DNA from: Mesoterricola sediminis
GTDB taxonomy: Bacteria > Acidobacteriota > Holophagae > Holophagales > Holophagaceae
Assembly (NCBI RefSeq): GCF_030295425.1
Contig: NZ_AP027081.1
Location: 1,550,001-1,614,000 of the forward strand
DNA: 64,000 nt
Direction: 5' to 3'
Within the stretch, counting starts at the first letter, position 1. Each line of letters begins with the position of its first letter. Both the position numbers and the translations under genes were made by a program. Under the pieces are notes generated by a model. The model ran no database searches. It was not told the DNA's origin and was given only the letters and a program-made list of their open reading frames with translations. This document shows positions 36,192 to 59,356 of the stretch, in pieces.

Positions 36192-36198
36192 AAGACTG

Positions 36199-37566: not shown

Positions 37567-37574
37567 GGGGTCCT

Positions 37575-37782: not shown

Positions 37783-37784
37783 AG

Positions 37785-38204: not shown

Positions 38205-38339
38205 TGTCAAGCGACATCAAAATTGACCCACCAGGCGACACGAAAACTGACCCACCTGGTAGTTGGGAACTGAAGCCGCCGGGGTGTCCGGAGCGGAGGC
38301 CGTAGGCCGTAGCGCAGGACATCCCGGCGGGCGCGGCCA

Positions 38340-39116: not shown

Positions 39117-40069
39117 GCCTCACCTCCCACGATGGCGGCGTAGTGGGAGAGTGGCCGCCGGATCTCGCTGGGTTTGCCCACCCGGGCGATGCCGTTGGTG
39201 AAGCTGACGGCGTGACCAGGATCCTCGATGACTTGGCGGCGTCCTGGATGGACCGGATGCTCCGCGATCACCTGGTCCTGGCAGAACACCTGGATGGTGT
39301 CGGCCTCGACGGTCACCTCCAGGGTGGCCCCGATGAACTGGGGCGGGACGCTGTAGCGGTTGGTATCCACATCGATCCGGCCATCCGCAGCCACCGTCCG
39401 GGACAGGTGGCGCACCAGGAGGTAGCTGGGATGGTTCCCAATCGGGCGCAAGGCCGCCTTCTCCGCCGGAAATCGATCTATCGGCCTCTCGCCGGTGGTC
39501 CCGTGGATCCGGGTGTCGGCCACGTTGAGCATCCACCAGACCAGGTGCTCGTCCAGGGCCTCATCGGATTCCCAGCCCTCGCGGCCAAGGGCATTCCCTT
39601 TGGCATAGCCGACGCTCCGTTCCACCTTGCCTTTCGTTTTCGCCCGGAACGGCTGGCAGGCCCTGGGAACTGTGCCCCAGTGCCGGCAGAAGGCGTCGAA
39701 TTCCGGGTGGAAGACGGGGATACCAGCCTTGCGCCTGTCCACCAGTGGCTTGGCATTGTCGGTTAGGAGGATCTCCGGGACGCCCTCGAAGTGCTGGAAG
39801 GCCCGTTCGATGCCCATGATCCAATCCCGCTGGCGGAGGCTTCCGGAGATCTCGATATAGCACCGCCGGCTGTAGCCGAGGGTCGCCACGAACACATAAC
39901 GCTTCTGACGGACGCCCCCGATCTGCAACCACTTCTCCCCGAAGTCCACCTGCATCTGCTTGCCAGGCGGGGTCTCGAACCGGACCGTGGCCTGCTCAGC
40001 CCTTTCGTAGCTCTGCCGGAAAGGGCGGAGGGCTCTCTCGACGGTCCGCAGGCTCACGGAAACGCCGAT
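39110..40069 (-). pseudogene. istA: IS21-family transposase IstA (copy A), 5'-truncated
   Basis: Carries about 315 of 417 residues, starting at VSVSLRTVERALRPF; the N-terminal helix-turn-helix is missing. The DDE core QMQVDFGEKW and LLTDNAKPLVD is present. At the point where intact copies continue upstream (after GCCGAT), the sequence jumps into the end of copy B. The frame remains open into that end but gives no meaningful protein there. Confidence 0.88.
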
Positions 40070-40140
40070 TATCGGGCGACATCCGAAACTGACCCACTTG
40101 CGACACGAATTCTGACCCACCCCCCCGAAAGGAGGAGGGC

Positions 40141-41394: not shown

Positions 41395-42164
41395 ATCCCC
41401 GCCTCGAACGCCTGGAGCGTCACCTGACCCGGCTGAAGCTGGTCAGCACCCGGGAACGCCTGGACACCCTCCTGGACCGCGGAGCTCAGAACGAAATGAG
41501 TTTCCTCGACTTCCTGGACCTGGTGATCAAGGAGGAAATCGAGAGCAAGGACCAGAAGCGCGCCCGGATGCGGATCCAGATGGCCAAGTTCCCCTTGGAC
41601 CGGCGCATGGAGGACTACGACTTCAGCCTGCAGCCCAGCCTGGACCGCCGCCTTGTGACGGAACTGGAGACGGGACGCTACGTCGCCAACGCAACGAATG
41701 TCCTGCTCCTGGGGCCGCCGGGCGTGGGAAAGACCCATCTGGCCATCGCCTTGGCTCGGAAGGCCATCGAGCAGGGATACAGCGCCAGGTTCATCCACGC
41801 CGCGGACCTGGTCCACCAACTGGCGGCGGCCTCGGACCACGGGGCGCTGGATGAGGCCCTGAGGGTATTCGCCCGCCCCCATGTCCTGGTCGTGGACGAG
41901 CTCGGCTACCTGCCCATGGAGCGACGGTCCGGGCATCTGTTCTTTCATCTGGTGCGGAAGCGCTACGAGAAGGGCAGCCTGATGATCACCAGCAACCAGC
42001 CCGTGGGCTCCTGGGGAGAGATGCTGGGGGACGAGGTGGTCGCGACGGCCATCCTGGACAGGCTCCTGCACCACAGCCATATCGTGACGATCAAGGGAGA
42101 GAGCTACCGCCTCAAGGAAAAGCGCCGGGCTGGCGTCGTGCCAGCCAAGGAAGTGGCCGGATGA
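41388..42164 (+). CDS. istB: IS21-family helper ATPase IstB (copy B)
   Basis: 258 aa, nearly identical to copy A. Walker A is GPPGVGKTHL and Walker B is VVDELGYL. Starts inside the istA stop (ATGGTAGATCC), indicating coupled translation. Complete. Confidence 0.95.
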   Translation: MVDPRLERLERHLTRLKLVSTRERLDTLLDRGAQNEMSFLDFLDLVIKEEIESKDQKRARMRIQMAKFPLDRRMEDYDFSLQPSLDRRLVTELETGRYVANATNVLLLGPPGVGKTHLAIALARKAIEQGYSARFIHAADLVHQLAAASDHGALDEALRVFARPHVLVVDELGYLPMERRSGHLFFHLVRKRYEKGSLMITSNQPVGSWGEMLGDEVVATAILDRLLHHSHIVTIKGESYRLKEKRRAGVVPAKEVAG

Positions 42165-42299
42165 TGGCCGCGCCCGCCGGGATGTCCTGCGCTACGGCCT
42201 ACGGCCTCCGCTCCGGACACCCCGGCGGCTTCAGTTCCCAACTACCAGGTGGGTCAGTTTTCGTGTCGCCTGGTGGGTCAATTTTGATGTCGCTTGACA

Positions 42300-42807
42300 G
42301 AGGGCAACACGCCCACCCCCCCCGGTCCGAGGTCCAAGCCTTCGGGCATCCAGGGCGCACCTGCCCCGCTCCTTTCGAGGCGACCCAGGGCTGCTCCCTT
42401 CGGTCCGCTGGCCTGGGTCCCAACCGCCTTTCCAGTCGCTCTTCGCTGCGCTCGCCCGGCACGGGAGCCGCACCCGTGCCGGGTCGATAGGCTTTGGCAG
42501 GCGCATCCTCGATGCCCTCCGGTTCTCCCCCCTTCCCGAGGCGCTTCACCCGAAGGTCTTGCCTTCCTGGTCAACAGGACGATGTCGAGAAAGTGAAGTG
42601 TTGTGCCAGGAGAGGATCCTTGGCGCGCGCCTGCGGTCTAGTCTTTATCTAAAGATAATGAATACATGGTTTACATTTATGAAAGCCAAGAGGGCACGGT
42701 GGCCGATTTCTGTCCAGGAGTGGCCTGCTTGTGGGGAGCAGGCGTGGTCTGATTCTGGAGGGCGGCCAAGTTGAAATTCTGCTTTCCGCTTACTCTGCTT
42801 GGTTGAC
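42300..42807. other. non-coding boundary between IS copy B and AT-rich cargo
   Basis: The left 290 bp are GC-rich with no credible gene; short open frames here have low-complexity Arg/Pro/Ala translations. From about 42600 the DNA turns abruptly AT-rich and remains so through the channel gene. No promoter or terminator can be named with confidence. Confidence 0.4.
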
Positions 42808-43794
42808 CTACTCTTGGTCTGCCTCGAGAATTACGTCTCCCGTTGAAGCTTGTGCTTGGCTTGGGTTGATGATACTGTCAATAATTTTGTGGCAAAGTCT
42901 GTTAGATATTCTTAATTTACTAGCAATGGTCTTGTGAATGTTTTTTGGCCAGGGCTGGAGTGGTAATAGATTGTTTACTGATTTTACTAGTTCTGGTGTT
43001 ATCTCAGAATAATAATGAATTTGCTCGTTGTTTATTTTGGATTTATTGTAGTGGTCAAAAATTCGTTGAATACGGTTATTGATTGGAATAAAGATGTCTG
43101 GTTGATCTTCCTGGTATAGCAAGGCTAGGGTCTTTTTGATCTGCCTCATCAACCGTTCGATTCGAGATTGCTCTCTTGGGGTTGCAAATGCTTCCATGCC
43201 GGCCATGGAAGCAAATTCGGCAGCTCGAATAATCGTGCGAGCCACTTTTAATGAACCTTTTTTTGCCCATCCTTCTCCGATAGCACCAACCCTAAGTTGA
43301 TATCCATAATAATGATTCAGATTGGCGACAATTGTCTCGAGTTCTTCGATGTATCTCATTTTTGAAATATGGTCATGATTTAGCATCGCATTTTTTAGGC
43401 CCTTTCCGCATTCTTCGATAGCAATGAAGAAAGAACTCAGTCTTCTTTCATTGTCGCTGGTGTAAAGCAATTTAATTAGGGTAGAAGTCCGGTCAGATGC
43501 TAACTTTGATACAATAATCGCCATTATTATGATGCCGCTTATTACTTCGAAGGATGCAAAGAGGCGTCCATAGCCTAGGGGAATATAGTCACCATATCCA
43601 AGAGTTGTGATAGTGGTTATGCTAAAATATAAACAGTTTAAAATTGTGATCGGTTCGTTAGGATTGCTTGCATTTCTAATTCCATTCGTTCCTGATGAGA
43701 AGTTGTAGTAATAGGCTGTAAAAAATAATATGTTGCAAATTAAACTTAAAACCCAAGTTCTGGTATTCGATTTGTCGATTATCTTGGTTAACAC
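42808..43794 (-). CDS. potassium-channel-like membrane protein with cytoplasmic domain
   Basis: 328 aa from GTG 43794, which follows AAGGGGAG by 3 nt; an in-frame ATG at 43827 has no ribosome site. A first membrane helix lies at about 13-30. The pore loop ends in the potassium selectivity filter TTLGYGD (about 63-69) and a second helix is at about 80-98, the two-helix-plus-pore (Ion_trans_2) layout. The C-terminal 220 residues are soluble and helical with no RCK/TrkA nucleotide fold. AT-rich and divergent from a PIN-like gene. Channels with a sensing cytoplasmic domain occur as toxic effectors in phage defence, so an effector role is possible; ordinary ion transport is the alternative. Confidence 0.8.
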   Translation of the reverse strand: MLTKIIDKSNTRTWVLSLICNILFFTAYYYNFSSGTNGIRNASNPNEPITILNCLYFSITTITTLGYGDYIPLGYGRLFASFEVISGIIIMAIIVSKLASDRTSTLIKLLYTSDNERRLSSFFIAIEECGKGLKNAMLNHDHISKMRYIEELETIVANLNHYYGYQLRVGAIGEGWAKKGSLKVARTIIRAAEFASMAGMEAFATPREQSRIERLMRQIKKTLALLYQEDQPDIFIPINNRIQRIFDHYNKSKINNEQIHYYSEITPELVKSVNNLLPLQPWPKNIHKTIASKLRISNRLCHKIIDSIINPSQAQASTGDVILEADQE

Positions 43795-43809
43795 GGTCTC
43801 CCCTTGAAA

Positions 43810-44094
43810 GTGCAAATTGAGACTCATTCGAATGATTGTGCGGACAATACGAATCCGACCCTGCAGGTATTAGAAGGTGCGATACTATATCTTGGCACAT
43901 TTCCTCTTGAATCTGGATGGCTGTGTCGGCTTATTTTGAGCGATTGCTGCCGAAAACCCATCGAGATTACCGTCACTGCGTACCTATCAACAGCACGTGA
44001 CGTGAAGGATCCACAGGAGACAGAAGCTTTAATGGAGGACCCTAGGTGGTTGGCAATCGGAATCCGTTTGACGGGTGGGTCCACGCCGATGTAA
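43810..44094 (+). CDS. hypothetical small protein upstream of the PIN-like gene
   Basis: About 94 aa from GTG 43810 (TTG 43804 also in frame); the start is uncertain and no ribosome site is seen. The sequence includes LQVLEGAILYLGTFPLESGW and LCRLILSDCCRKPIEITVTA, which look like beta strands. It overlaps the next gene by 49 nt, and the GGAGG ribosome site of that gene lies inside it, suggesting coupled expression. Its start is only 16 bp from the divergent channel start, which leaves little space for promoters and weakens the call. Confidence 0.35.
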   Translation: MQIETHSNDCADNTNPTLQVLEGAILYLGTFPLESGWLCRLILSDCCRKPIEITVTAYLSTARDVKDPQETEALMEDPRWLAIGIRLTGGSTPM

Positions 44095-45314
44095 CCGAGG
44101 CAGATATTTACTTTTGGCGTGAGCACCCCTGCAATCCGGATGGTGAACTCAGGATCCTGCTTTTCCGGGAACCTGATCGGGTTGTCGGGATGTCTCCCTA
44201 TCCAGAAGAGATCGCAAAATCAAATCGCCTCATCGATTCGTTTGGCCAACGGACCTGCCTTCTGTTGGATCGTGAGAGCCTCTCAGAGCCCATGGAACAC
44301 CGCATCAGGCCCATCATCATGTTCGATTCCAATGCCATCGACTTCATGATCCACCCTTCACGGGCTGAGAATGAAGAAAAGGCCGGGGCTGGTTCAAATT
44401 GGGACCTTGAGAACGCCATCGTGGCTTCAGGGTATGGCTTGAATATAGATTTCTATGTTTACGAAGTATTTATGACAAACGGTATTTCCAAAGAGGTGCT
44501 TGAACGACTTGTTGACCCGATTGAACAACTGTTTAAGTTGCAAAATTGCCAGCAAGAGCCATGGATAAGAGAGCGGAAAAGGGTCGTGGATTTGAATTCT
44601 GCGAAACAGGTCTTTGAGGAAGCAGGAGTGAAGGACTTCAGGGGCTTGGCCAAGGTTCATATAGATATGCTCCTCGCCCGATGGAAAAACGGTATGGCTG
44701 TGACTTTCAAACATTGGGAATCCGCAAGCTATGTGATGCTCCTTAAGGCTGTACAGTTGGGTGCCGATTCCGCAAAGGAAACCGTTGAAAAAATGGAACT
44801 TCTTTGGGAGTTCGAACTTGAAGTGCTTGGTGTAAGTTTCATGCGAGAGAAAATTTTCGCAGCCCTTTACATGGAGGGACGCAGCCAACCTGCGAGGGAT
44901 TTCATATTTAAGAATATTCGCCAATCTGGTCTTCGAAGGAAATTGCGAGGCTCTGCCAGAGACCTTCTCCTTCCCCGCTTTGCCGAACGGAGCCTTGTTG
45001 CACACTTGGGCCAAGGAGAATTCCTGATCCCGCATCTGCTAACGTTTGACCGACCGCTATTGGGACTCTCGAATCCCATTCAACTCCATCACTTATATTG
45101 CAGGAATGGGGACCGCGCCTGGACTGTTGTCTATGATTTTGAACATCTTAGGACGGAATTACTTAAGGCGGTTTCCGCAGAAGTTTTAGAAACTCTCCTG
45201 TCCAATCCGGGGAGAGCCTGCCCTGAAAAAAAGGGGCTCTCCGGGATGGAATGGGATTCCTTGGTGGAGAACCTGGAATCCCAAGTCTCCCGGTTGCTTC
45301 GGGTGGCCGTTTGA
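44046..45314 (+). CDS. unknown protein with PIN-like features
   Basis: 422 aa from GTG 44046, placed 7 nt after GGAGG. At about residue 97 the stretch RPIIMFDSNAIDFMIHP resembles the first strand and acidic residue of PIN-domain ribonucleases. Later acidic positions include YEVFMTNG and a C-terminal LIPHLLTFDRPLLGL, where PIN domains carry their last aspartates. The middle is helical. A PIN-like nuclease fold is therefore suspected, not shown. It is divergent from the channel gene, AT-rich, and sits in a cargo island, so a defence or toxin role is reasonable to consider. No family recognised. Confidence 0.6.
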   Translation: MVGNRNPFDGWVHADVTEADIYFWREHPCNPDGELRILLFREPDRVVGMSPYPEEIAKSNRLIDSFGQRTCLLLDRESLSEPMEHRIRPIIMFDSNAIDFMIHPSRAENEEKAGAGSNWDLENAIVASGYGLNIDFYVYEVFMTNGISKEVLERLVDPIEQLFKLQNCQQEPWIRERKRVVDLNSAKQVFEEAGVKDFRGLAKVHIDMLLARWKNGMAVTFKHWESASYVMLLKAVQLGADSAKETVEKMELLWEFELEVLGVSFMREKIFAALYMEGRSQPARDFIFKNIRQSGLRRKLRGSARDLLLPRFAERSLVAHLGQGEFLIPHLLTFDRPLLGLSNPIQLHHLYCRNGDRAWTVVYDFEHLRTELLKAVSAEVLETLLSNPGRACPEKKGLSGMEWDSLVENLESQVSRLLRVAV

Positions 45315-45492
45315 ACCATCCATCTCCGTCTAAATGGCGAATGGCAACGACATTGGCCTTCCCAATGGGGGCCTCCCTGCCCAGCCCGCAGGATGAGCAG
45401 GCTTGTGTGCCCCGGATCTCTCCGAACAAAATCGTGCAGGAACTTGTTGGAGCCCGGCCTGCTCGACCTAGCCAATGTCGTAGATTCTTGGC

Positions 45493-45852
45493 CTAGCGCT
45501 TCTTCCCATCGCTGCTCTTCGTGGCTGATCCCGCCGCCAGCCCATGGCGATCGGCATATAGTGCAAGCGCTTCCTCGACTACGGTGCCGATGGTTGCTTC
45601 ACCCCGGGCGAGTTCTCCGCGAATCGCTCGGGCCTGGAGGTCTGCAACCAGAAGTTGAAGGAGTTCGGCCGGTCCCTGTCGGAGTCGAAGGGTGAAGGGG
45701 ATGGTCGGCTCCTTCGTTGGCCGCCCCACAGCCCGGCGCTCTGGGGATGGATCCTTGGATGTATCCAGGGCGCTTGCGGCGGCCTTTCCGGACCCTGCCT
45801 TCAGAACCTCCTGGAGTAGGGCGTCCTTCTTGATCTGTTTCGAAGGGGACAT
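45493..45852 (-). CDS. small partition-associated protein (probable ParB-like/RHH partner)
   Basis: 119 aa from ATG 45852. It starts MSPSKQIKKDALLQEVLKAG, has a central GRPTKEPTIPFTLRLRQGPA and then helices ELLQLLVADLQARA and TVVEEALALYADRHGL. The strand-helix-helix near the middle is compatible with a ribbon-helix-helix DNA-binding partner of ParA. It is 40 bp downstream of the ParA remnant on the same strand. GC-rich, unlike the cargo genes on both sides, so it probably belongs to the older scaffold of the island. Confidence 0.55.
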   Translation of the reverse strand: MSPSKQIKKDALLQEVLKAGSGKAAASALDTSKDPSPERRAVGRPTKEPTIPFTLRLRQGPAELLQLLVADLQARAIRGELARGEATIGTVVEEALALYADRHGLAAGSATKSSDGKKR

Positions 45853-45892
45853 TGAAAATTCCGAGCGTCTAGGATTTTTGACATCAAAAAAT

Positions 45893-46282
45893 CTAGACGG
45901 TTTGGAGCCAGGATTCAATCCGGGACCAAAGGGTCTTGGCCTCGTGCGCGGCGGCGCCCCCCAGGTGGACCAGGCTCTTTCCGTCCGCGAAGGCTTCAGG
46001 GAATGCGGCGCGCTCCGAAAGCCGACCCAGCAGCGGCAACTTGGCAAGCCGGAGCCCCTCCTCGACAACCCGATTCCGGGTCGTCTCCCGGAAATGGTTC
46101 AGGACCACGCCGGCCCTCAAGGCGCCGCCCCTTTCGGCAAGTTCATCCAGCGCCCGGATGGCTCGCCCCAGGGCATCCAACTCAGGGCGACCGGAACCTG
46201 ACGGCAAGATGAGGGCGTCCGCCAGGACCACCTGTCCTTGCCCCCTGCGGAAAACGGCTTGATTCATCAAAAGGTTGGACAT
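45893..46282 (-). pseudogene. parA: ParA-family ATPase, N-terminally truncated
   Basis: 129 residues match the C-terminal half of plasmid/ICE ParA proteins: VVLADALILPSGSGRPELDAL, ALDELAERGGALRAGVVLNHF and LPLLGRLSERAAFPEAF, each quoted in part. The P-loop half with the KGGVGKT motif is missing, and the open frame begins where AT-rich DNA of the esterase operon begins (about 46265). The gene was probably cut by acquisition of that operon. It should not be functional as a partition ATPase. Confidence 0.7.
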
Positions 46283-46379
46283 TACGTCTGGAAGGCATGC
46301 GTCAGAGTTTGGTAGAATTAATCAATTCATGCTTGATAAGACCGCTTTGGAGCAATAGGAGGAAGCCCTGGCCGACCTT

Positions 46380-49300
46380 TTGGCATTATCTGGAAGCCCG
46401 GGAGAGGCATCTGTTCATGTTGTGTTTATCCATGGCCTGAATGGAGACAAGCGAAAGACTTGGCTAACTCAAACCGAGCAGCCAGAGCTGTGGCCATGTT
46501 GGTTGACTGCAGATATTGAAAGCGCCTGCACCTGGACTATCGGTTACGATGCGTCACCCACAAGGTGGCATGGCTTCAGTATGGCCCTCCAAGACAGAGC
46601 AGAAAACTTACTTCCTCTCATTATAAATGAAAAGGGCTTATCGACTGGAAATATAGTCTTTGTTGGTCATAGCCTCGGTGGCTTAGTAATTAAACAGTTG
46701 CTACGATGTGCGGACAGGGAAAAAAATTTTAGTAAAGCCGCAGAATTGTTTTTACACCGGGTTAAAGGGGTTGCCTTCTTGGGAACCCCTCACTTTGGGT
46801 CTGCTTGGGCTGGTGTGGCCAGGAAGCTCGGGTCTCTGCTCCGCATGTCACCAGCAGCTGCAATTCTCGAACGTAACAATCCGGCTTTACGTGAATTAAA
46901 CCTTTGGTATAGATCTTTTTGCACTACAAATCAAGTTCAAAATCTTGTTTTGGTGGAAATGCGGCCGATGAAGAGGCTCGGGCTTGTAATTGTCACGCCT
47001 GATAGTTCGGACCCCGGGGTTGGGGTCGCGCCGATCCCAATTGATGCTGATCATGTCGGAATTGCAAAGCCAATGAACCGTAAGGCCGAGGTCTACAAGC
47101 ATTTGATTGAATTTATTAATGGCCCTTTCAATGGAATCCACTCGGACATATTATTGTCAGAATCAATTAAGCAAAATTCCTTGGAAGTCAGAGCGTTAGC
47201 AGATATATCCGAAAAACAGGCACAGGCTATTGATAGATTGGGGCATATTCTCCTGGATGAGCTGCCCCGTTGTGAGAATCCGCAGGTTATGGGGGCCTAT
47301 GGCAGGCAGATTATTGATTCCGAGGCAACAAAAAGGCTCAGAAAAATAAAAATTTCAAGATTTTTTAATGAATTCAATTTAATTGCTTCGATTAACGCTT
47401 TGCTGACAAGCGTTGAAGGCGGGGATCTGGGGAATGTCTCCGATGTCGTAAAGCTTGAAATTCTGGGATGGTGCTCGCGCTTTCTCTCCCTGACTGACTT
47501 GCATAGGGCGCGAGAAATCCTTAACCGTGCGTCAATCTATGGAGACAGCCAAACACTAATAATCGCACGTGCGTTTGTTGAAGTGCAAACGAGCGGTATT
47601 CCGACAGCACTTGGCTTGCTCGCATCCATTGATTCTTGCGTGGCAAGATCGGCTGCGTTCATGATTCTAAGAAATCACCAAGGTCTGCAGTATGCATTTG
47701 AATGGCTGGAGCAAACGGGAATTTCTGTTGACCAATTAGACTCCGAGGGGCGATTTATCGCCCTTCAGGGATGCATGCAGGAAGAGGCATGGGACATGGT
47801 TTTGAAGTTGGCAGATGGGATGGTCGAAAGTGATTTTGAACATACTCCGATATTGATGCATGCTGTTGGTGATGCATTCCTTGCAAGGGCGGTTCCGGTT
47901 GAGTTAAGGGCCAAAGTCTTGCAACAACTTCAATATGGAATCTTCCAATTCCCTCTGGCGAGTGATGCAGAGGCCCTTTCTTTCAGGCGTTCTGCTCAGG
48001 ACATGTATGAAAGGGTAGCTCAATTTGCCATGGATTTGGGATTTCAAAGGGCGGCCAATATTTCGAGCGATAAGGCTCTATGTCTTGCACTTCGGGATGT
48101 CGATCGCGAAGCAATGGCAAGGCTTGAGCTGGAAAAGAGCATGCGTGATCCAGAATGCTCTTTGCGTAGACTTCCCTTGGCGATTCAGTATGGTTTGGAT
48201 GTCGATCTTGCAGCTGCGGAAATCCAGGTTGACCGGCAGACTGTATTGAGTGGGGGCACTTCTGCGGAGGCGGCAATCGCCAGGTTTGCACTAGCTTTGG
48301 CAAAAAAAAGTCCTGCCGAAGTGGCAAGTTATCTAGATCAGCACCGATCACAGCTATTACAGCATTTAGATTCAAAAGCAATTGGGTTTATTGAGGTTGA
48401 GATGCTTTCGCGCTCGGGGCAACTTCAGAAGGCGAGCTTGCGTTTTCAGGAAATGATTTCTCTAGGGATTACTAGCTTAGAAGAATTGCGAATCCGCAAA
48501 ATAATGGACGAAGCAGCTGGGGTAGAACCGTTAACTCATCTTCTGGCGCTGTATGAGAAAAGCGGATCAATTACGGATCTGCGAAACTTGGTTAATGCCT
48601 TGGAAGAGGGCAAAGATTGGAAGAGGTTAATTCTATTCGGTTCTAAGATGTTTGAATTGACCCGGGATTTGTCTGATGCGGTCAGTTATGCAAAAGCTCT
48701 GTATGAAAATGATGAATTTCTCTCATTGGAAAAACTGTTTAATGAATTCCCTGAGATTATTGATCAATCTGAAAATTTAAGGGCTATACGATGTTGGGCG
48801 CTTTATCGGCAGGGGCGGCTTAATGAAGCCCGACTTTCCTTGCCGGGAACGCGTGCAGGTGAATTGAATGATACTGGTGCTGAATTGTTCGCTAACATAG
48901 CTATAGCATCTGGAGATTGGGAATCACTTCATGTTTTTATTGAGGAGCAGTGGGCCGCCCGGAGCACTCGAAGGCCGATGGAGCTCCTTCGTGCAGCCCG
49001 ATTGGCTCAAATGGTTGGCTCTTCAAGGTCAAGGGACTTGGTCTTTGAATCGGCCCGACTCGGTTCCGAGGATCCAAATATTTTGATTGGATGCTACGTG
49101 ATAGCAACAGAACTGGGTTGGGAGGACTCTGTGGAGGCTTCGGCCTGGTTGCAAAAGGCGGCTGGTCTTTCTGGAGAGGATGGTCCAATTCGGCATATGT
49201 CCATGGAAGAGTTGATCAATCGACAGCCTTCCTGGGAAGCGCAAACGAACCAGGTATTTAGAGTGCTTAGGAAGGGTCAGGCTCCGATCTTGGCGGCTGC

Positions 49301-50996
49301 GCAGATGTTAAATCGTTCTCTTTTGAATCTTTTTCTGGTTCCGGCCTTAGTTAACCAAGGCGAGGCTGATATTCGGAAAAGGGTGGTTATTAATTCTTTC
49401 AGTGGGGCGAGGGGACGAAATACGGCTACGCCTCGTTGTATTGCAATTGACGCGACGGCCTTGCTCACCATTGAGCTCCTTGGCTTGTCGGAAGTAGTGT
49501 TAGAACACTTTCGAGAAATAGCTATTCCTCATGGGACGCTCGGTTTGTTGCTTGAAGAGAAGCGGAAGATTCTTTTCCATCAGCCGAGTCTGGTTGCGGA
49601 TGCACATGAGCTGAGGCGCTTGCTATCGACGGGATGCTTAAAAGCATTCGAACCTTCTGTTTTGCCTGAAGCCAAGTTATCTGGTCTGATAGGGGACGCT
49701 CTAGCTGCAATGGTGGCGGATGCAAAAACTAACCATTCTTTGGACGGGAAGCCAAGGTTTGTTGTCCACCCGTTTCCGGTCTTTACGGGCTCACTCATGC
49801 AAGAAGAGGCTGACCTTTCACAATATGAAGACTATTTGTGTGGGTGTATGGCTGTTGTTGAAAGGCTAGCAAATCAAGGTGAACTTACGGCCAGCACCTA
49901 TAAGGATTGCAAAGCATACTTGATGCTTCAAGAGCAGCCATGGCCGAAGAAAAATGAAATCAATGAGCCAGCCCAAATATATTTGGATGATATTGCTGTT
50001 TCCCACTTACAGCATCTCAAGCTTCTTGCATCGTTGGAGAGATGTGGCCTGACTGCATTTGTGTCAAATTCAAAAATTGCAGAAGCTGACGCACTAATTC
50101 GTCATGAACACTATGCTGAAAAGGCAGTGGCGGTAGTTGAAGCTCTGCGGTTGCATTTGCGGGCGGGTATCGAGTGTGGCAAGGTCCGAGTTGGCCAACG
50201 ATTAACCGGAGATGACAAGGAGGGTGAACTCCGGATTGGGCAACATCCTACGCTCGCCATGCTTCCTTTGTCGGTTTCAACGGATGCCATCGTTATTGAT
50301 GATCGATTCTTTAATCAGCATGCAACTGTTTCATTTGATGGGGTTGAAAAGCCCCTGTTAACTACAATTGATGTAATTGACCTGCTCGTTGATTCTGGGG
50401 CCCTGGATAATGAACAGGCATTAACCCATAAGACAACACTACGCCTGGCAGGGATGATCCATGTTCCCCTTAGTGAAGGTGAACTTGCAACTTGCTTGTT
50501 AAACGCTCATGTAAAGGATGGCAAGCTTATCGAAACAGCAGAATTGAGAGCGATTAAAGAAAATATTCTTTTGGCCAGAATGGCTGACGTTTTGCAGATA
50601 CCTTTGGAGGTTTCGTGGCTTGATTCATTCTGTCATGCTTGCCACAGGGTCCTTCAGTCACAGTGGCAGGAGGGAGCGGATTATTGTTCGATTCGTGTCA
50701 AATCGAATTGGTTATTTGATCTGATGAATTTTCGACGATGGGCTCATAGCTATAAGGGGCTTGTCCCCAATGCTGAAGACCGTTATCGATTGCAGGTTGC
50801 AGCTCTGATGGTTCTCCCGACATGTAAATCTAATGAGGTTAGAAGGGAGTATTTTGATTGGTTTGAAAACGAAATATTGAAAGAAATCAAAGAGCGGGAT
50901 CATCCGTTGTTTAGTCTGATTGTTACAGGGGCAGCTAACTTGATTGATAGCTGTCTAAAAAATATATACGCCAATGAGGCACAAAATGACAAATGA
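46380..50996 (+). CDS. SesB-like serine esterase - TPR-like - PIN-like fusion protein
   Basis: 1538 aa. Residues 1-250 are an alpha/beta hydrolase: VVFIHGLNG, TIGYDA, nucleophile S98 in FVGHSLGGLVIKQLL, FLGTPHFGS, candidate acids D208/D211 and H225 in DADHVGIAKP, as in SERAC1/SesB esterase heads of NLR-like proteins. Residues about 280-1000 are helical with TPR-like segments (GQLQKASLRFQEMI, ALYRQGRLNEARLSL). The tail has PIN-like acidic strands: CIAIDATALL (D1024) and AIVIDDRFF (D1307/D1308). No NTPase P-loop is seen. TTG 46380 is far from AGGAGG at 46357; an in-frame CTG at 46368 is better spaced. Translationally coupled to the next gene. Likely a defence effector by inference. Confidence 0.8.
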   Translation: MALSGSPGEASVHVVFIHGLNGDKRKTWLTQTEQPELWPCWLTADIESACTWTIGYDASPTRWHGFSMALQDRAENLLPLIINEKGLSTGNIVFVGHSLGGLVIKQLLRCADREKNFSKAAELFLHRVKGVAFLGTPHFGSAWAGVARKLGSLLRMSPAAAILERNNPALRELNLWYRSFCTTNQVQNLVLVEMRPMKRLGLVIVTPDSSDPGVGVAPIPIDADHVGIAKPMNRKAEVYKHLIEFINGPFNGIHSDILLSESIKQNSLEVRALADISEKQAQAIDRLGHILLDELPRCENPQVMGAYGRQIIDSEATKRLRKIKISRFFNEFNLIASINALLTSVEGGDLGNVSDVVKLEILGWCSRFLSLTDLHRAREILNRASIYGDSQTLIIARAFVEVQTSGIPTALGLLASIDSCVARSAAFMILRNHQGLQYAFEWLEQTGISVDQLDSEGRFIALQGCMQEEAWDMVLKLADGMVESDFEHTPILMHAVGDAFLARAVPVELRAKVLQQLQYGIFQFPLASDAEALSFRRSAQDMYERVAQFAMDLGFQRAANISSDKALCLALRDVDREAMARLELEKSMRDPECSLRRLPLAIQYGLDVDLAAAEIQVDRQTVLSGGTSAEAAIARFALALAKKSPAEVASYLDQHRSQLLQHLDSKAIGFIEVEMLSRSGQLQKASLRFQEMISLGITSLEELRIRKIMDEAAGVEPLTHLLALYEKSGSITDLRNLVNALEEGKDWKRLILFGSKMFELTRDLSDAVSYAKALYENDEFLSLEKLFNEFPEIIDQSENLRAIRCWALYRQGRLNEARLSLPGTRAGELNDTGAELFANIAIASGDWESLHVFIEEQWAARSTRRPMELLRAARLAQMVGSSRSRDLVFESARLGSEDPNILIGCYVIATELGWEDSVEASAWLQKAAGLSGEDGPIRHMSMEELINRQPSWEAQTNQVFRVLRKGQAPILAAAQMLNRSLLNLFLVPALVNQGEADIRKRVVINSFSGARGRNTATPRCIAIDATALLTIELLGLSEVVLEHFREIAIPHGTLGLLLEEKRKILFHQPSLVADAHELRRLLSTGCLKAFEPSVLPEAKLSGLIGDALAAMVADAKTNHSLDGKPRFVVHPFPVFTGSLMQEEADLSQYEDYLCGCMAVVERLANQGELTASTYKDCKAYLMLQEQPWPKKNEINEPAQIYLDDIAVSHLQHLKLLASLERCGLTAFVSNSKIAEADALIRHEHYAEKAVAVVEALRLHLRAGIECGKVRVGQRLTGDDKEGELRIGQHPTLAMLPLSVSTDAIVIDDRFFNQHATVSFDGVEKPLLTTIDVIDLLVDSGALDNEQALTHKTTLRLAGMIHVPLSEGELATCLLNAHVKDGKLIETAELRAIKENILLARMADVLQIPLEVSWLDSFCHACHRVLQSQWQEGADYCSIRVKSNWLFDLMNFRRWAHSYKGLVPNAEDRYRLQVAALMVLPTCKSNEVRREYFDWFENEILKEIKERDHPLFSLIVTGAANLIDSCLKNIYANEAQNDK

Positions 50997-52911
50997 TCTT
51001 GTCCGATACGCATTGATGAACTCAGCTTTGGCATATATGCCACCACTTGTTAAATCGGCTTTGATTGAAGAAAGCGCTTTTATGTATAAACATAACCTGC
51101 AGACGACGGCTAATATTCAATTCAGGGATCTTGGCACTTCTTTCAGTCGAGAGGCTCTTTTCTCTGCGATTCGGGAAGCATTGCGAGAAAAACTTGATTG
51201 TACATATGTTGATGATAAAGATGGGTGTAGTTGGCAAATTATATTTGAAAAGTCCGATGGGGATTGCCGCATTTGCTTAAGTTTGGAAGATAAAAGGGCT
51301 TGGCTACCGCAAAGCTGGGCATTTTCGGAAGATCAGGCCGTAAGAAGTAATGGGTTTGAACGAGACGCGCATTCCGTTAATTTGATCGGCGATGTCGCGA
51401 ACGAGTGGCGGGACCGTCTTTTGAGGGCGCCAATTGAAAATGAGGATCATGAAAAATTGGTAGAACAATTTCGCTTGACTCCATTCCGTCAAACCGGTTT
51501 TTTGGCCTCTCTTTTGCGGTCGGGGGCTTGCGGCCTTCAGGACTTGGTTCCCAATAAGCATTGGTATTACGATCGGTTAGTTGGTTCTATCGAAGCGCAA
51601 GAGGATCTTTCCTCGTTTGCTGGTTCTGGGGCGAAGCACCTCATTGATCAACTTATCGATTGGAGCCGGATAGACGGTTTGAAGTTGGCATTTCTTATTT
51701 CCTCTTATCGGGGATTAAATGTAACAATTGAGAAACATGAATTTAGCGATCTGGAAATTGATGAAATCTTTTCGTGGGTTTTAAAGCAAGGTTGTCTTCT
51801 GTCAAAATTAGGCGCGATTGAACTAGGGCTTGGTATAATAGATAAGCACCCTCGGATCGAATCGTTAATTGAGAACATTGTTTCTGGTATTTTGCGTGAT
51901 GATATTAATGACGAAGATGGCGGATTTTATGCGTTGTCTACCCTTGTTGTGTTTGTTTGTAATGAATTGGCTCGCACTCGGTTGCTGTATGGAAAGCCCC
52001 CTTTTTGGATTCGTCTTGCTGCGATTGCCCAAGCATCAGTTATAGAGCGTGCAATTATCGCCTCGGGAATTAAGCGTTCTGATTTCATAGCTTGGGCTCA
52101 TGAATTTGGAGGGAAGAGATTCTATTTGCAGACTTTAATCGATCTAAGAATAGAGCCGCGGTGGCTCCCGGATTTTGTCAGTCCCCGGCAGTTAAAGTCC
52201 GAATTCCTGGGTAGGATTCTAAATGCCGCAGTGGCCAATGAGGCAAAGATTTCTTCTTCCGCTCTCCGAGAAATCTTGCTGGCTGACACAAATCAAGGAG
52301 GTTTAAAGTCTCAAATAGAGTTCCCATATCCCTTTTTGCCGGGCCCCATTGAAGGTGGAGTAAGGTCTGAAACTTCGATGCCTGACGAATATCTAGCCTT
52401 AATTGAGGAAAAATTATCCTCAAAGGACCTTGGTCCCAATTCATTTGCTGGCTTAGTGAATCTAGCGCTTATTCTACGCCTGGAGGCAGACCATGCTAGG
52501 CTTGCTGTAAATGCTCTACGTGCAGCAAAATATAGGTTGAATGAAGCTGGGGATGAGGAAGAGGTATTTGGACTGCTAAATGGCCTTGCAGTCGTTGCAG
52601 CTGTTACTAGAAGTGTTGAACTTGCGGAAGAAGTTAGCATTTTAAATCGAGTTATTCGGAAACGTGATGGTAAGAGGGACCGTGTCGGTCCGGAACTGAG
52701 GATTGGGTTGATTCTGGCTGCCGCTCACTCGGAACGAGAAAATTGGGCAACTTTCGTTGGTGACTGGTTCACCGAGTTGGCCTTTAATGTTAATTCAATT
52801 GATGATGCAAAAAGGCTTTTGGAGGATTTGCGCTGTATGTGCGAGCTTGAAGCAAGCTTGTCACCTTATTGCGGAAGGGCCGATGCTGCACTTCTTTCGA
52901 TGGTAAAATAG
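50986..52911 (+). CDS. unknown partner of the esterase-TPR-PIN protein
   Basis: 641 aa from ATG 50986, which has GAGG 6 nt upstream; ATG 50974 is in frame. Either start overlaps the end of the preceding gene by 11-23 nt, so translation is coupled. No named domain can be recognised. The N-terminal 170 residues are mixed alpha/beta with a CRICLSLEDKRAWLP strand, the rest is mostly helical with possible repeat structure (ALSTLVVFVCNELARTRLL; LALILRLEADHARLAVNAL). There is no signal peptide or clear membrane helix. Same low GC and codon use as the upstream gene. It could be a sensor, inhibitor or scaffold of the fusion protein; nothing in the sequence decides this. Confidence 0.75.
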   Translation: MTNDLVRYALMNSALAYMPPLVKSALIEESAFMYKHNLQTTANIQFRDLGTSFSREALFSAIREALREKLDCTYVDDKDGCSWQIIFEKSDGDCRICLSLEDKRAWLPQSWAFSEDQAVRSNGFERDAHSVNLIGDVANEWRDRLLRAPIENEDHEKLVEQFRLTPFRQTGFLASLLRSGACGLQDLVPNKHWYYDRLVGSIEAQEDLSSFAGSGAKHLIDQLIDWSRIDGLKLAFLISSYRGLNVTIEKHEFSDLEIDEIFSWVLKQGCLLSKLGAIELGLGIIDKHPRIESLIENIVSGILRDDINDEDGGFYALSTLVVFVCNELARTRLLYGKPPFWIRLAAIAQASVIERAIIASGIKRSDFIAWAHEFGGKRFYLQTLIDLRIEPRWLPDFVSPRQLKSEFLGRILNAAVANEAKISSSALREILLADTNQGGLKSQIEFPYPFLPGPIEGGVRSETSMPDEYLALIEEKLSSKDLGPNSFAGLVNLALILRLEADHARLAVNALRAAKYRLNEAGDEEEVFGLLNGLAVVAAVTRSVELAEEVSILNRVIRKRDGKRDRVGPELRIGLILAAAHSERENWATFVGDWFTELAFNVNSIDDAKRLLEDLRCMCELEASLSPYCGRADAALLSMVK

Positions 52912-53042
52912 ATTTTATGGCTATTTCCTATATGATTATAAACCCAATCGGGTGATATATTGTTTTTAGGTATTTTTCGTTGTTATTGAAATTGACGTTA
53001 TAGGACCGTCCATCTCTGTGTTCCAGGGTGTTGATCAGGCTA

Positions 53043-53358
53043 TTATTTAATTTCTGAGCCAATCCCGAGAAGTCCAGCAATATATTCACCGATTTCCTCA
53101 GCCACCTGAGCAAGAATCGGATCCGACCGTCGGAGATAGGTATCTTTGATCTTGCCTCTGGAGTGGCCCAAGAGGGCATCCACGACGGCCTCGTCATGGC
53201 CGAGGTCAACGCCAATTGAACCAAAGGTTCTGCGCAGGTCGTGAAGGGAGACCGCGCCCTGGGGATTGCTTTCACCTATCGCGGACGCATCTCTGAGCTT
53301 GGTCCAGGAACGCCAAAGGGATCGTTTGAGGACGGTAGGCGGAAGGCTGCCTAGAATT
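53043..53358 (-). pseudogene. 3' fragment of the island 2 integrase
   Basis: C-terminal about 105 residues of a tyrosine recombinase: LPPTVLKRSLWRSWTKL, catalytic HDLRRTF, LLGHSRGKIKDTYLRRSD with the nucleophile tyrosine. It ends at the AATTG duplication flanking IS21 copy C. Joining to the 5' fragment (55589-56494) after removing the IS and one AATTG restores a continuous 405-aa reading frame (STTAKAI + LGSLPP). Confidence 0.9.
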
Positions 53359-53494
53359 GTGTCAAGCGACATCAGAATCGACCCACCAGGCGACACGAAA
53401 ACTGACCCACCTGGTAGTTGGAAATTGAAGCCGCCGGGGTGTCCGGAGCGGAGGCCGTAGGCCGTAGCGGAGGACATCCCGGCGGGCGCGACCA

Positions 53495-54271
53495 TCATCC
53501 GGCCACTTCCTTGGCTGGCACGACGCCAGCCCGGCGCATTTCCTTGAGGCGGTAGCTCTCGCCCTTGATCGTCACGATGTGGCTGTGGTGCAGGAGCCTG
53601 TCCAGGATGGCCGTCGCGACCACCTCGTCCCCCAGCATCTCCCCCCAGGAGCCCACGGGCTGGTTGCTGGTGATCATCAGGCTGCCCTTCTCGTATCGCT
53701 TCCTCACCAGATGAAAGAACAGATGCCCTGACCTGCGCTCCATGGGCAGGTAGCCGAGCTCGTCGACGACCAGGACATGGGGGCGGGCGAAAACCCTGAG
53801 GGCCTCATCCAGCGCCCCGTGGTCCGAGGCCGCCGCCAACTGGTAGACCAGGTCCGCGGCATGGATGAACCGGGCGCTGTAGCCCTGCTCGATGGCTTTC
53901 CGGGCTAGGGCGATGGCCAGATGGGTCTTTCCCACGCCCGGCGGCCCCAGGAGCAGGACATTCGTTGCGTTGGCGACGTAGCGTCCCGTCTCCAGCTCCG
54001 CCACAAGGCGCCGGTCCAGGCTGGGCTGCAGGCTGAAGTCGTAGTCCTCCATGCGCCGGTCCAAGGGGAACTTGGCCATCTGGATCCGCATCCGGGCGCG
54101 CTTCTGGTCCTTGCTCTCGATTTCCTCCTTGATCACCAGGTCCAGGAAGTCGAGGAAACTCATTTCGTTCTGAGCTCCGCGGTCCAGGAGGGTGTCCAGG
54201 CGTTCCCGGGTGCTGACCAGCTTCAGCCGGGTCAGGTGACGCTCCAGGCGTTCGAGGCGGGGATCTACCAT
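53495..54271 (-). CDS. istB: IS21-family helper ATPase IstB (copy C)
   Basis: 258 aa with Walker A GPPGVGKTHLAIALA and Walker B VLVVDELGYLP. Differs from copies A/B at a few residues (LVAELETG for LVTELETG, DLVYQLAAA for DLVHQLAAA, LKEMRRAG for LKEKRRAG). Overlaps the istA stop by 7 nt. Complete. Confidence 0.95.
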   Translation of the reverse strand: MVDPRLERLERHLTRLKLVSTRERLDTLLDRGAQNEMSFLDFLDLVIKEEIESKDQKRARMRIQMAKFPLDRRMEDYDFSLQPSLDRRLVAELETGRYVANATNVLLLGPPGVGKTHLAIALARKAIEQGYSARFIHAADLVYQLAAASDHGALDEALRVFARPHVLVVDELGYLPMERRSGHLFFHLVRKRYEKGSLMITSNQPVGSWGEMLGDEVVATAILDRLLHHSHIVTIKGESYRLKEMRRAGVVPAKEVAG

Positions 54272-55518
54272 GCCTCACCTCCCACGATGGCGGCATAGTG
54301 GGAGAGCGGCCGCCGGATCTCGCCGGGTTTGCCCACCCGGGCGATGCCGTTGGTGAAGCTGACGACGTGACCGGGATCCTCGATGACCTGGCGGCGTCCA
54401 GGATGGACCGGATGCTCCGCGATCACTTGGTCCTGGCAGAACACCTGGATGGTGTCGGCCTCAATGGTCACCTCCAGGGTGGCCCCGATGAACTGGGGCG
54501 GGACGCTGTAGCGGTTGGTATCCACATCGATCCGCCCATCCGCGGCCACCGTCCTGGACAGGTGGCGCACCCGGAGGTAGCTGGGATGGTTTCCCATCGG
54601 GCGCAAGGCCGCCTTCTCCGCCGGGAATCGATCTATCGGCCTCTCGCCGGTGGTCCCGTGGATCCGGGTGTCGGCCACGTTGAGCATCCACCAGACCAGG
54701 TGCTCGTCCAGGGCCTCATCGGATTCCCAGCCCTCGCGGCCAAGGGCATTCCCTTTGGCATAGCCGACGCTCCGTTCCACCTTGCCTTTCGTTTTCGCCC
54801 GGAACGGCTGGCAGGCCCTGGGAACTGTGCCCCAGTGCCGGCAGAAGGCGTCGAATTCCGGGTGGAAGACGGGGATACCAGCCTTGCGCCTGTCCACCAG
54901 TGGCTTGGCATTGTCGGTTAGGAGGATCTCCGGGACGCCCTCGAAGTGCTGGAAGGCCCGTTCGATGCCCATGATCCAATCCCGCTGGCGGAGGCTTCCG
55001 GAGATCTCGATATAGCACCGCCGGCTGTAGCCGAGGGTCGCCACGAACACATAACGCTTCTGACGGACGCCCCCGATCTGCAACCACTTCTCCCCGAAGT
55101 CCACCTGCATCTGCTTGCCAGGCGGGGTCTCGAACCGGACCGTGGCCTGCTCAGCCCTTTCGTAGCTCTGCCGGAAAGGGCGGAGGGCTCTCTCGACGGT
55201 CCGCAGGCTCACGGAAACGCCGATGGCCTCCAGTTCCTGGCGGAGGACATCGGCGTTGCGCACCCCGGCGTTGAACTGGTTCTGGATCCAGAAGTAATAC
55301 CTGTCCAGGAGGCCGGCCCGGGAGCCGTTTCCATAGCTTCTGTCCGGCCCTCCGCGAACCCAGTCCCGAACCGTATTCCGAGAGAGGCCGACCTCCCGGG
55401 CGATCTTTCGGATCGACCAGCCCAAGTTCTGCAAAGCAAATATTTGGGCCACTGCACCGTCTCCGAGCATCCTGGCCTCCGGCTTATGGAGACCAGCGTC
55501 CCGCGGTTCGAACTCCAT
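54265..55518 (-). CDS. istA: IS21-family transposase IstA (copy C)
   Basis: 417 aa, complete, with the N-terminal helix-turn-helix (IRKIAREVGLSRNTVRDWV) and the DDE core (QVDFGEKW, LLTDNAKP). A few substitutions separate it from copy B. A strong AGGAGG lies before the ATG. Possibly still active, which would account for the spread of the element within this island. Confidence 0.95.
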   Translation of the reverse strand: MEFEPRDAGLHKPEARMLGDGAVAQIFALQNLGWSIRKIAREVGLSRNTVRDWVRGGPDRSYGNGSRAGLLDRYYFWIQNQFNAGVRNADVLRQELEAIGVSVSLRTVERALRPFRQSYERAEQATVRFETPPGKQMQVDFGEKWLQIGGVRQKRYVFVATLGYSRRCYIEISGSLRQRDWIMGIERAFQHFEGVPEILLTDNAKPLVDRRKAGIPVFHPEFDAFCRHWGTVPRACQPFRAKTKGKVERSVGYAKGNALGREGWESDEALDEHLVWWMLNVADTRIHGTTGERPIDRFPAEKAALRPMGNHPSYLRVRHLSRTVAADGRIDVDTNRYSVPPQFIGATLEVTIEADTIQVFCQDQVIAEHPVHPGRRQVIEDPGHVVSFTNGIARVGKPGEIRRPLSHYAAIVGGEAW

Positions 55519-55588
55519 GCCCTCCTCCTTTCGGGGGGGTGGGTCAGAATTCGTGTCGCAAGTGGGTCAGTTTCGGATGTCGCCCGAT

Positions 55589-56494
55589 AATTGCCTTGGC
55601 CGTTGTGGAGAGATAGACGCGCCGACACCCTTTGAGGCCAGCCATACCTGCAGGGAATCGGAGAAGTCCCTCCTCGGGGAACTGGTGTTCCTTGGTCATG
55701 TGCAAGACCACGCCTTCGCGGGCGCCCGTCAGCAAAAGAAAGATGGCGGCCGTCTGGAGTGGTTCCTTCTTCTCCCGAAAGAACTTACCGAGCGTTCGAA
55801 TCTCCTCTTCTGTCAATCTTCGCTCCCTCGCCATCTCGGTGTGTCGCTCGAACCCCTTCGTATGGTTTCCGGAGACCTCGGGGAAGCGCAGGCCGGCCCA
55901 GTTGAACATCTTGGACAGCAGGGATTTCACTCGGTTCATGAGCACCGGCCGATCAGCTAGCGTGTCGAGAAAGGCGATCACCTTGAAGGAGTTCAACTCG
56001 GCGATTTTTACGGCGCCTAAAGCGGGGAGGACGTGACGGTCAAGCATCCACCCGTTGTTTCGCTGGGTTGATGGCTTGTTCTTCACGAGGCAGTACTTGC
56101 TATAGAAATCCTCCGCCATTGACCTGAAAAGGGGATGCTTCGGTTCCTCGGGCGGGGCAGGGGCCTGAACCAATTTCTCGGCCTCCTTGATCAACTTCTC
56201 CGCCTGCCTAGCCTTGCGGGGGGCGACCAGGGCTTCGCCATCCGAAAGCCGACGCCGAAGCCTCTCCACTTCGCTTTTGGCTGCAATGGAGTTGACGCTT
56301 GGGTAGCGTCCGATCGTGTAGCACTGCGGCTTCCCGCTGGCATCGCGGTATTTGAATAGCCACGATCGAATGGGTGCCTCCGGTTTCCCGGTCACCTGGA
56401 TGTAAAGGCTCGGGCAGCCATCAATGGGATATCTCTGGACTTTCTTGTCTGGCACTGGAACCAGGGCGAGGATGTTCTTCTCGTTCGCCCTCAT
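55589..56494 (-). pseudogene. 5' fragment of the island 2 integrase
   Basis: N-terminal 302 residues of a tyrosine recombinase from ATG 56494: DUF4102-like arm-binding region (PSLYIQVTGKPEAPIRSWLF, YTIGRYPSV), a core-binding SAM-like domain (RHVLPALGAVKIAELNSF) and the first catalytic arginine in LLLTGAREG (R259). The protein breaks at the IS21 copy C insertion, leaving the HxxR and tyrosine motifs in the separate fragment at 53043. The gene lies next to att repeat 3, the normal position of an island integrase. Confidence 0.92.
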
Positions 56495-56538
56495 GAAACC
56501 GCCTCACAGATCCCTCTTGGATGCACTGGTGGGGCGCA

Positions 56539-56583
56539 CGATTACCACGCGGTTACCTCGAAGAGGTGGTCCAGGTAGACGCA
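56539..56583. promoter_or_regulatory. possible arm-type recombination sites of island 2
   Basis: Upstream of the broken integrase lie TTACCAC, GGTTACC and AGGTAGACGCA within 45 bp. Matching words occur near the other end of the island at 37858-37907 (GGTAATCG, GTTACCAC, AGGTAGAGGCA). Their placement at both ends resembles integrase arm sites, but the matches are short. Confidence 0.4.
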
Positions 56584-56641
56584 GGAATTTTTAAGTCGTT
56601 TAGATGCAATGGGGAATTTTCTGGCTAGAGGGCATTTGCTT

Positions 56642-56692
56642 GACTCTTAATCAGAGGGTCCAGGGTTCGAGTCCCTGAGGAACCACCAGAAA
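56642..56692 (+). repeat. attachment-site repeat 3 (51 bp, right end of island 2)
   Basis: Third exact copy of the tRNA-Lys 3' end. It is the original chromosomal 3' end of the tRNA gene displaced by the two islands, or its replacement. No 5' tRNA half is present. Confidence 0.95.
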
Positions 56693-59348: not shown

Positions 59349-59356
59349 GAGGACGC

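What the first reader, a model, noticed from the sequence alone, without database searches (positions are those of the whole stretch)
46368..52911. Two-gene operon with esterase-TPR-PIN fusion: candidate new defence system
The first protein combines a SesB/SERAC1-like serine esterase head (GHSLGG, catalytic His near 225), about 700 residues of TPR-like helices and a PIN-like tail with acidic strands, without a visible NTPase P-loop. It is translationally coupled to a 641-aa protein with no recognisable domain. Esterase heads on repeat scaffolds are known from NLR-like immune proteins in fungi and bacteria. Here the usual NACHT/NB-ARC module is absent and a second putative effector is at the other end. 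The operon is AT-rich, in a tRNA-borne cargo island, and has cut a parA gene. I know no named system with this layout.
Basis: partly seen in the sequence, partly recalled or inferred. Interest (0 to 1): 0.85.

Follow-up and report, generated by a model that had tools for sequence, protein, structure and literature searches.

The report
Split esterase and double-PIN defence operon
On a mobile island in a bacterial chromosome sits a two-gene operon that looks like a self-destruct or RNA-cutting defence against invaders; it is a rearranged version of a defence type already predicted from sequence but, as far as the papers read here show, not yet tested.

Summary
ORF1 (46368/46380-50996) is a serine-esterase head, a long helical region, an HTH and two PIN domains; no P-loop. 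ORF2 (50986-52911, 641 aa, overlapping by 11 nt) is not featureless: it carries a Permuted_GreAB-C domain one bit over Pfam's cut-off, then a helical solenoid. The operon lies in the second of two tandem tRNA-Lys islands bounded by three identical 51-nt repeats, beside a parA fragment without its P-loop. The layout is not nameless: it is a variant of the TPR-GreA/B-C-PIN conflict system predicted by Kaur et al. 2021 (PMC8195603). All 23 loci I accepted, window included, have the ORF2 region next to or fused to the double-PIN core. Seven encode both in one gene; ORF2 matches the C-terminal half of that gene (E 2.8e-5 against 0.25-0.44 for three controls). Heads swap: esterase, membrane, HNH, caspase, REase-like, PNP. 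Defence is the best reading, untested. New relative to the text I read: esterase head, paired PINs ahead of GreAB-C, and the split into two coupled genes.

The parts
46368..50996 (+). ORF1: esterase head + helical/TPR-like region + HTH + double PIN; 1538 aa from TTG 46380, 1542 aa from CTG 46368
46419..46808 (+). serine-esterase core (DUF676, residues 14-143 in TTG numbering); Ser98 in GHSLGG; His225 (in ADHV) lies beyond the model match
   Evidence: PADLOC head model DUF626_VIII E 1.9e-33, residues 13-282
47367..49169 (+). helical, probably TPR-like scaffold (approx. residues 330-930)
   Evidence: weak: TPR-type families match relatives, mostly under cut-off, none over cut-off in the window protein; bounds are my estimate
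49203..49412 (+). HTH_upst_double_PIN (PF24407), residues 942-1011
49422..49949 (+). first PIN domain (approx. residues 1015-1190); acidic residues conserved in 12 of 12 aligned rows: D1024, E1060, E1143, D1145
   Evidence: the PF20698 model falls on this half in relatives L009 and L010, under its cut-off; bounds approximate
49980..50327 (+). second PIN domain (PF20698, residues 1201-1316); conserved in 12 of 12: D1203, E1254, D1307, D1308
50986..52911 (+). ORF2 (641 aa; longest frame starts at 50974): GreAB-C-like domain + helical solenoid; overlaps ORF1 by 11 nt
51133..51276 (+). Permuted_GreAB-C (PF24388), residues 54-101 in the numbering from 50974
   Evidence: 28.0 bits, cut-off 27; relatives 31.7 and 39.6 bits
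51334..52908 (+). alpha-helical solenoid
   Evidence: AlphaFold2 model, mean pLDDT 81, helical from residue 121 on; helical-repeat matches in the fold search
45893..46282 (-). parA fragment without P-loop, next to the operon's 5' end
   Evidence: (CbiA slightly under cut-off)
37732..56692 (.). second tRNA-Lys island, which carries the operon; bounded by two of three identical 51-nt repeats
53043..56494 (-). integrase gene of that island, in two pieces (53043-53498 and 55544-56494) either side of an IS21-like element

Best explanation
A mobile two-gene conflict (probably anti-phage or anti-plasmid) system of the TPR-GreA/B-C-PIN kind. Shown by sequence: ORF1 joins a swappable effector head (here a serine esterase) to a constant helical-HTH-double-PIN core; ORF2 is the GreAB-C-like plus helical half that cyanobacterial relatives carry in the same polypeptide, so the two products very probably form one complex. 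Inferred: the pair is held inactive until infection; ORF2, through its GreAB-C-like domain and solenoid, senses or docks on transcribing RNA polymerase (the proposal of Kaur et al. 2021 for the parent system); the paired PINs then cut RNA; and the esterase damages membrane lipids or another ester to stop growth or kill the cell before the invader spreads. Likelihood by step: conflict system 0.8; one complex 0.8; PINs are active RNases 0.65; esterase is a suicide effector 0.5; docking on RNA polymerase 0.3.
For: Pfam models of the predicted system match above curated cut-offs in both genes and in both genes of two plasmid relatives, with one PIN match just under its cut-off (26.5 of 27.8). Partner constantly linked, in loci that were found by the core and not by the partner: 13 two-gene loci with an intact-looking, overlapping partner, 3 two-gene loci with a cut or broken partner just downstream (L012 judged by eye), 7 fused loci; 23 of 23 accepted. 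ORF2 profile aligns colinearly with the fused C-terminus, E 2.8e-5, probability 74%, against 0.25, 0.44 and 0.31 for three controls. Head swaps on one core: esterase, membrane, HNH, caspase, Mrr/REase-like, PNP, or a short N-terminus. Acidic residues of both PINs invariant in 12 of 12 rows; esterase Ser and His kept in the 4 intact esterase heads, by eye. Patchy and mobile: 3 of 297 genomes of the window's phylum, the window's included, hold a convincing core; 0 of 59 other relatives hold a detectable ORF2 (single-sequence search, so remote relatives could be missed); found on plasmids and behind a recombinase cluster. 6 of 10 hand-picked neighbour proteins, in 4 of 5 loci, match PADLOC models, one weakly.
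Against: No functional data. Window ORF2 clears the GreAB-C cut-off by only 1 bit. Fold search of the double-PIN model gave nothing at E <= 0.001 and no row titled as a PIN protein (a long multi-domain model); PIN identity rests on profiles and conserved acids. No TPR family over cut-off in the window protein. The neighbour scan had no random-gene control, and the two neighbours of the window's own operon that I scanned matched nothing in PADLOC. No relative in phage records, in 3 pattern scans of viral contigs or, by DNA of L017, in E. coli genomes.
Confidence: 0.6

Rival explanations
1. Suicide RNase/esterase module whose partner is only an inhibitor, a large toxin-antitoxin pair: ORF2 restrains ORF1, with no RNA polymerase docking, and serves island maintenance as much as phage defence.
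For: Two overlapping genes, toxin-type domains (PIN, esterase), sits on plasmids and islands.
Against: The partner follows instead of preceding the toxin and is 600+ aa; in 7 of 23 loci it is part of the same polypeptide, odd for a labile antitoxin; heads swap while PINs stay, typical of sensor-effector systems.
Confidence: 0.2
2. The esterase is the only effector; the double PIN is an RNA-binding sensor that recognises invader RNA without cutting it.
For: Every accepted core keeps the PIN region (split over two frames in the degenerate L019) while the head varies, so the PIN/partner part could be the sensor; HTH in front of the PINs.
Against: Acidic residues at catalytic-type positions are invariant in 12 of 12 rows in both PINs, more than RNA binding alone should need; two relatives have only a short N-terminus and no recognised head.
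Confidence: 0.15
3. Housekeeping RNA-processing pair of no defence relevance.
For: GreA/B-C and PIN domains are also used in ordinary transcription and RNA turnover (established knowledge).
Against: Rare and patchy, mobile, swapping toxin-like heads.
Confidence: 0.05

Closest known systems
TPR-GreA/B-C-PIN conflict system (Kaur, Iyer, Burroughs, Aravind 2021 eLife, PMC8195603; section 7 read whole, passages)
   Same: Same PIN version (PF20698), GreA/B-C-type domain, helical repeats, swappable N-terminal effector; predicted defence with a suicide head.
   Different: The paper gives one polypeptide with TPR, GreA/B-C and a C-terminal PIN, mostly stand-alone genes. Here HTH and two PINs come first, the GreAB-C is of the permuted type in a second gene, and the head is an esterase. 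No word beginning with 'esterase' occurs in the main text, and the one passage found with alpha/beta-hydrolase outside the references concerns another domain family; of the 13 heads the text names only some, and Figure 2K and its source data I could not see.
DS-3 and DS-5 of DefensePredictor (PMC13092281; passages only)
   Same: PIN-containing anti-phage systems shown by experiment; DS-5 needs both its proteins.
   Different: DS-3 is one protein with a split PIN; the DS-5 partner has DUF5830 and an AcrIF4-like domain. Sequences not compared here.
Esterase/DUF676 heads on NLR-like and other immune proteins (head-only plasmid hits H9-H27, among them NB-ARC, AAA-like, TPR and ABC-three component proteins)
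   Same: Same type of esterase head on a larger scaffold, 26-42% identical, mostly over 15-16% of the query.
   Different: No NTPase switch here; core is double PIN plus partner.
GAPS6, a GMT-encoded anti-phage system (recalled; the paper, doi 10.1038/s41564-024-01840-5, is not held)
   Same: Recalled as a two-protein system with TPR and PIN parts.
   Different: Could not be compared; the first island gene beside L018 matches GmtY only far below its cut-off (25.7 of 340 bits).

Membership tests
TPR-GreA/B-C-PIN conflict system (Kaur et al. 2021) | The specific PIN version of the system | tested here: met
   PF20698 43.7 bits, cut-off 27.8, two stretches
TPR-GreA/B-C-PIN conflict system (Kaur et al. 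2021) | GreA/B-C-type domain | tested here: met
   PF24388 28.0 bits, cut-off 27, in ORF2; 31.7 and 39.6 in two relatives; in fused proteins only one sub-threshold match (18.5 bits, 1 of 4 scanned). Permuted type, and in the partner protein
TPR-GreA/B-C-PIN conflict system (Kaur et al. 2021) | TPR repeats between head and core | tested here: inconclusive
   No TPR family over cut-off in the window; weak TPR-type matches in relatives
TPR-GreA/B-C-PIN conflict system (Kaur et al. 2021) | Variable N-terminal effector on a constant core | tested here: met
   esterase, caspase and PNP over cut-off, HNH just under (20.4 of 21), REase-like and membrane heads by likeness
TPR-GreA/B-C-PIN conflict system (Kaur et al. 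2021) | Domain order TPR, GreA/B-C, PIN | tested here: not met
   Order is helical, HTH, PIN, PIN, then GreAB-C, in split and in fused relatives
TPR-GreA/B-C-PIN conflict system (Kaur et al. 2021) | One polypeptide (the paper says 'mostly occur as standalone genes') | tested here: not met
   Two genes here and in 15 other loci; one gene in 7
TPR-GreA/B-C-PIN conflict system (Kaur et al. 2021) | Acts on RNA polymerase and transcripts | not testable with these tools
   Prediction of the paper; needs binding and cleavage assays
NLR/STAND immune receptors | NACHT/NB-ARC-type P-loop NTPase | tested here: not met
   No NTPase family, no Walker A motif in either protein
VapBC-type toxin-antitoxin | Small PIN toxin with small antitoxin gene just upstream | tested here: not met
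   1538 aa and 641 aa, partner downstream
GAPS6 (recalled) | Sequence homology to the published pair | not testable with these tools
   Paper not held; no NCBIfam model matched either gene at E <= 1

The most novel reading that the evidence does not exclude
A defence machine that uses the cell's own RNA polymerase as its sensor: the GreAB-C-like partner sits on transcribing polymerase, recognises a hijacked or stalled complex, feeds the transcript to a tandem pair of PIN nucleases and, if that fails, releases the esterase head against the membrane, giving two graded responses in one NTPase-free complex. The splitting or joining of the partner and the head swaps would make it a modular chassis.
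Probability: 0.2. Interest if true: 0.75.

Novelty: new variant of a known kind. Interest (0 to 1): 0.42.

Why it matters
The parent system has been a paper prediction since 2021 and, in what my paper searches found (one search was rejected for its wording; most subscription papers are not in the library), I saw no experimental test of it. A naturally split version lets the supposed polymerase-binding half and the nuclease/effector half be expressed and mutated separately, which makes the prediction directly testable. It also links an esterase effector familiar from NLR-like proteins to an NTPase-free sensor.

Tried and rejected
Rejected: NLR/STAND membership (no P-loop); VapBC; membership in GMT islands for the L018 neighbour genes (GmtY far below cut-off; Phage_integrase matches in three genes, only the first over cut-off, plus a sub-threshold DUF6262 match).

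Led nowhere: PDB sequence searches with both profiles (one chance-level hit: none; with the head: a putative serine hydrolase at E 0.0049 and an RTX toxin chain at E 0.05); Foldseek and VIA-align of the two models gave mostly helical-repeat matches, and no row shown is titled as a PIN or Gre protein, but both models are long multi-domain chains and the small domains were barely tested; viral contigs, phages (80, 81) and E. coli genomes (79, DNA of one L017 stretch) had no relative; promoter scan found 1 site against a mean of 8.5 in shuffles, terminators as in shuffles. The first profile comparison of ORF2 with the fused C-terminus, on 3 and 4 sequences, was weak (probability 2%, E 0.024); only the larger alignments gave E 2.8e-5. 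PIN1 against PIN2 by profile: probability 10%, E 0.003, reversed control 0.25: suggestive of a duplication only.

Dropped before counting: L025/L028 (26.8-bit HTH hit, 35.5 with neighbours, in an ankyrin-like frame; not found by my core profile), and L004, L005, L023, L024, which repeat the window, L026 and L027. Plasmid hits H2 and H5 look like duplicates of H1 and H6 and were not counted. H9-H27 match only the head. L012's partner was judged by eye in one frame of its last stretch. L019 was left out of the tree, which has 22 rows.
Full report
What is there. ORF1 runs from 46380 (TTG) or 46368 (CTG, five bases behind AGGAGG) to 50996; ORF2 from 50986 (or 50974) to 52911. ORF1 holds a DUF676 serine-esterase head with Ser98 and His225, a long helical region, the HTH_upst_double_PIN domain and PF20698, the 'PIN domain associated with the TPR-GreAB-C-PIN system'; the three named domains are above curated cut-offs, the helical region matches no TPR family over cut-off. 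ORF2 holds Permuted_GreAB-C, one bit over its cut-off, followed by a helical solenoid in a model of mean pLDDT 81. There is no P-loop in either.

Two PINs. In an alignment of 12 cores, invariant acidic residues include two sets: D1024, E1060, E1143, D1145 and D1203, E1254, D1307, D1308. The PF20698 model falls on the second half in the window and on the first half in L009 and L010, there under its cut-off. The two halves align end to end by profile, weakly (probability 10%, E 0.003; reversed control 0.25). The fold search did not confirm a PIN fold, so this rests on profiles and residues.

The partner is the other half of a single machine. I accepted 23 loci: the window; L001-L003 and L006-L008 from plasmids; L009-L022 from the genome scan, 14 of 20 pattern matches; L026 and L027 from the window's phylum. 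All were found by the core, not by the partner. Sixteen are of the two-gene type: in 13 an intact-looking partner lies directly downstream and overlaps the core gene (by 4 to 50 nt from the longest possible start), and in three (L011, L012, L019) the partner is cut or broken but present, L012 by eye. Seven are fused: six cyanobacterial, one from the window's phylum. The partner profile aligns colinearly with the fused C-terminus over 354 columns with E 2.8e-5; reversed and unrelated helical controls gave 0.25, 0.44 and 0.31. A first try on fewer sequences had been weak. ORF2 relatives on plasmids occur in 3 records, all with the core (two of the three are near-copies). Several loci are near-copies of each other (L007/L021, L001/L013, L014/L015), so the 23 are not independent.

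Heads. The core carries an esterase in the window, L001, L010, L013 and the degenerate L019; a hydrophobic N-terminus that looks like two membrane helices (read by eye) in L002, L014, L015, L017, L018, L020; HNH in L026 (just under cut-off); PNP in L027; caspase in L003; a REase-like N-terminus in L006-L008, L021, L022 (Mrr match E 0.059 in one; otherwise by likeness to it); and a short N-terminus in L011 and L012. L009 has no head in frame and L016 is cut by its contig. In a tree of 22 cores (L019 left out), fused, membrane-headed and esterase-headed loci each form one group with starred support; the headless L009 falls among the esterase loci and the cut L016 among the membrane ones. The window lies with the esterase loci of Pseudomonadota (98/99), on a long branch whose place the program flags as unsure. 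This fits transfer between phyla with the head inherited along.

Setting. Three identical 51-nt copies that include the tRNA-Lys 3' end (28238, 37732, 56642) bound two tandem islands; each has an integrase gene next to its right-hand repeat. The operon lies in the second. Its integrase gene is split by an IS21-like element. GC falls from about 70% to 44-50% over the operon. Among 60 genomes searched with the single ORF2 sequence, the window's included, only the window's matches; of 297 genomes of its phylum 4 match the HTH model and 3 of these, the window's among them, have a convincing core.

What it most likely does. Kaur et al. 2021 (section 7 read whole) predicted that such proteins dock on RNA polymerase by GreA/B-C, cut the transcript with the PIN and, failing that, release a suicide head. 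The window's version fits that idea with the parts re-ordered and divided over two coupled genes. I rate a conflict role at 0.8, a single complex at 0.8, active PIN RNases at 0.65, a suicide esterase at 0.5 and polymerase docking at 0.3. Candidate defence neighbours exist (PDC-M66A/B directly upstream in L010, PDC-S21 just downstream in L020, HEC-05 and a phospholipase-effector match in L013, a weak ThsA match in L001; none for the one protein of L002), but these are 10 hand-picked proteins from 5 loci without a control, and the two scanned neighbours of the window's own operon matched nothing.

Known or new. The kind is known as a prediction; Pfam already names the double-PIN HTH and the permuted GreAB-C. 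Order and gene number differ from the description I could read, so I file it as a variant, not as a plain member. I could not see Figure 2K or the source data of that paper, nor the paper on GAPS6, which I recall as a two-protein TPR/PIN system; either may already contain this layout.

Noticed in passing
window 28238-37782 and 37732-56692: Two tandem tRNA-Lys islands with three identical 51-nt att-like repeats, each with an integrase gene at its right end.
   Followed up: partly
window 53043-56494: The second island's integrase is split by an IS21-like element, so the island has probably lost its own excision.
   Followed up: partly
window 38205-42299 and 53360-55603: Three IS21-like copies, 97-98% alike; two face each other 365 nt apart.
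   Followed up: no
window 34420-34487: int-alpA RNA (RF02996, 41.7 bits) on the minus strand of the first island.
   Followed up: no
window 42808-43827: Ion-channel-like protein (Ion_trans_2, E 1.1e-15) in the AT-rich part of the second island, next to a 422-aa orphan at 44046-45314.
   Followed up: no
L011:4531 and L012:8036 (N-termini): A short shared N-terminal motif (GD.STN..A.RD.NI) stands where others have an effector head; meaning unknown.
   Followed up: no
L017 and L018, about 2450-7730: A cluster of recombinase genes directly in front of the pair, behind a probable ssb gene (read by eye). In L018, three match Phage_integrase, only the first over cut-off, and the fourth DUF6262 below cut-off; L017 by likeness of its frames.
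   Followed up: partly
L016: Contig labelled Roizmanbacteria groups tightly with gammaproteobacterial cores; possibly a binning error.
   Followed up: no
L019:6653-14384: Degenerate Mesorhizobium copy: esterase head and core in different frames, partner N-terminus missing.
   Followed up: no
window 59129-62419: Patatin-like phospholipase with DUF3376 just outside the islands.
   Followed up: no
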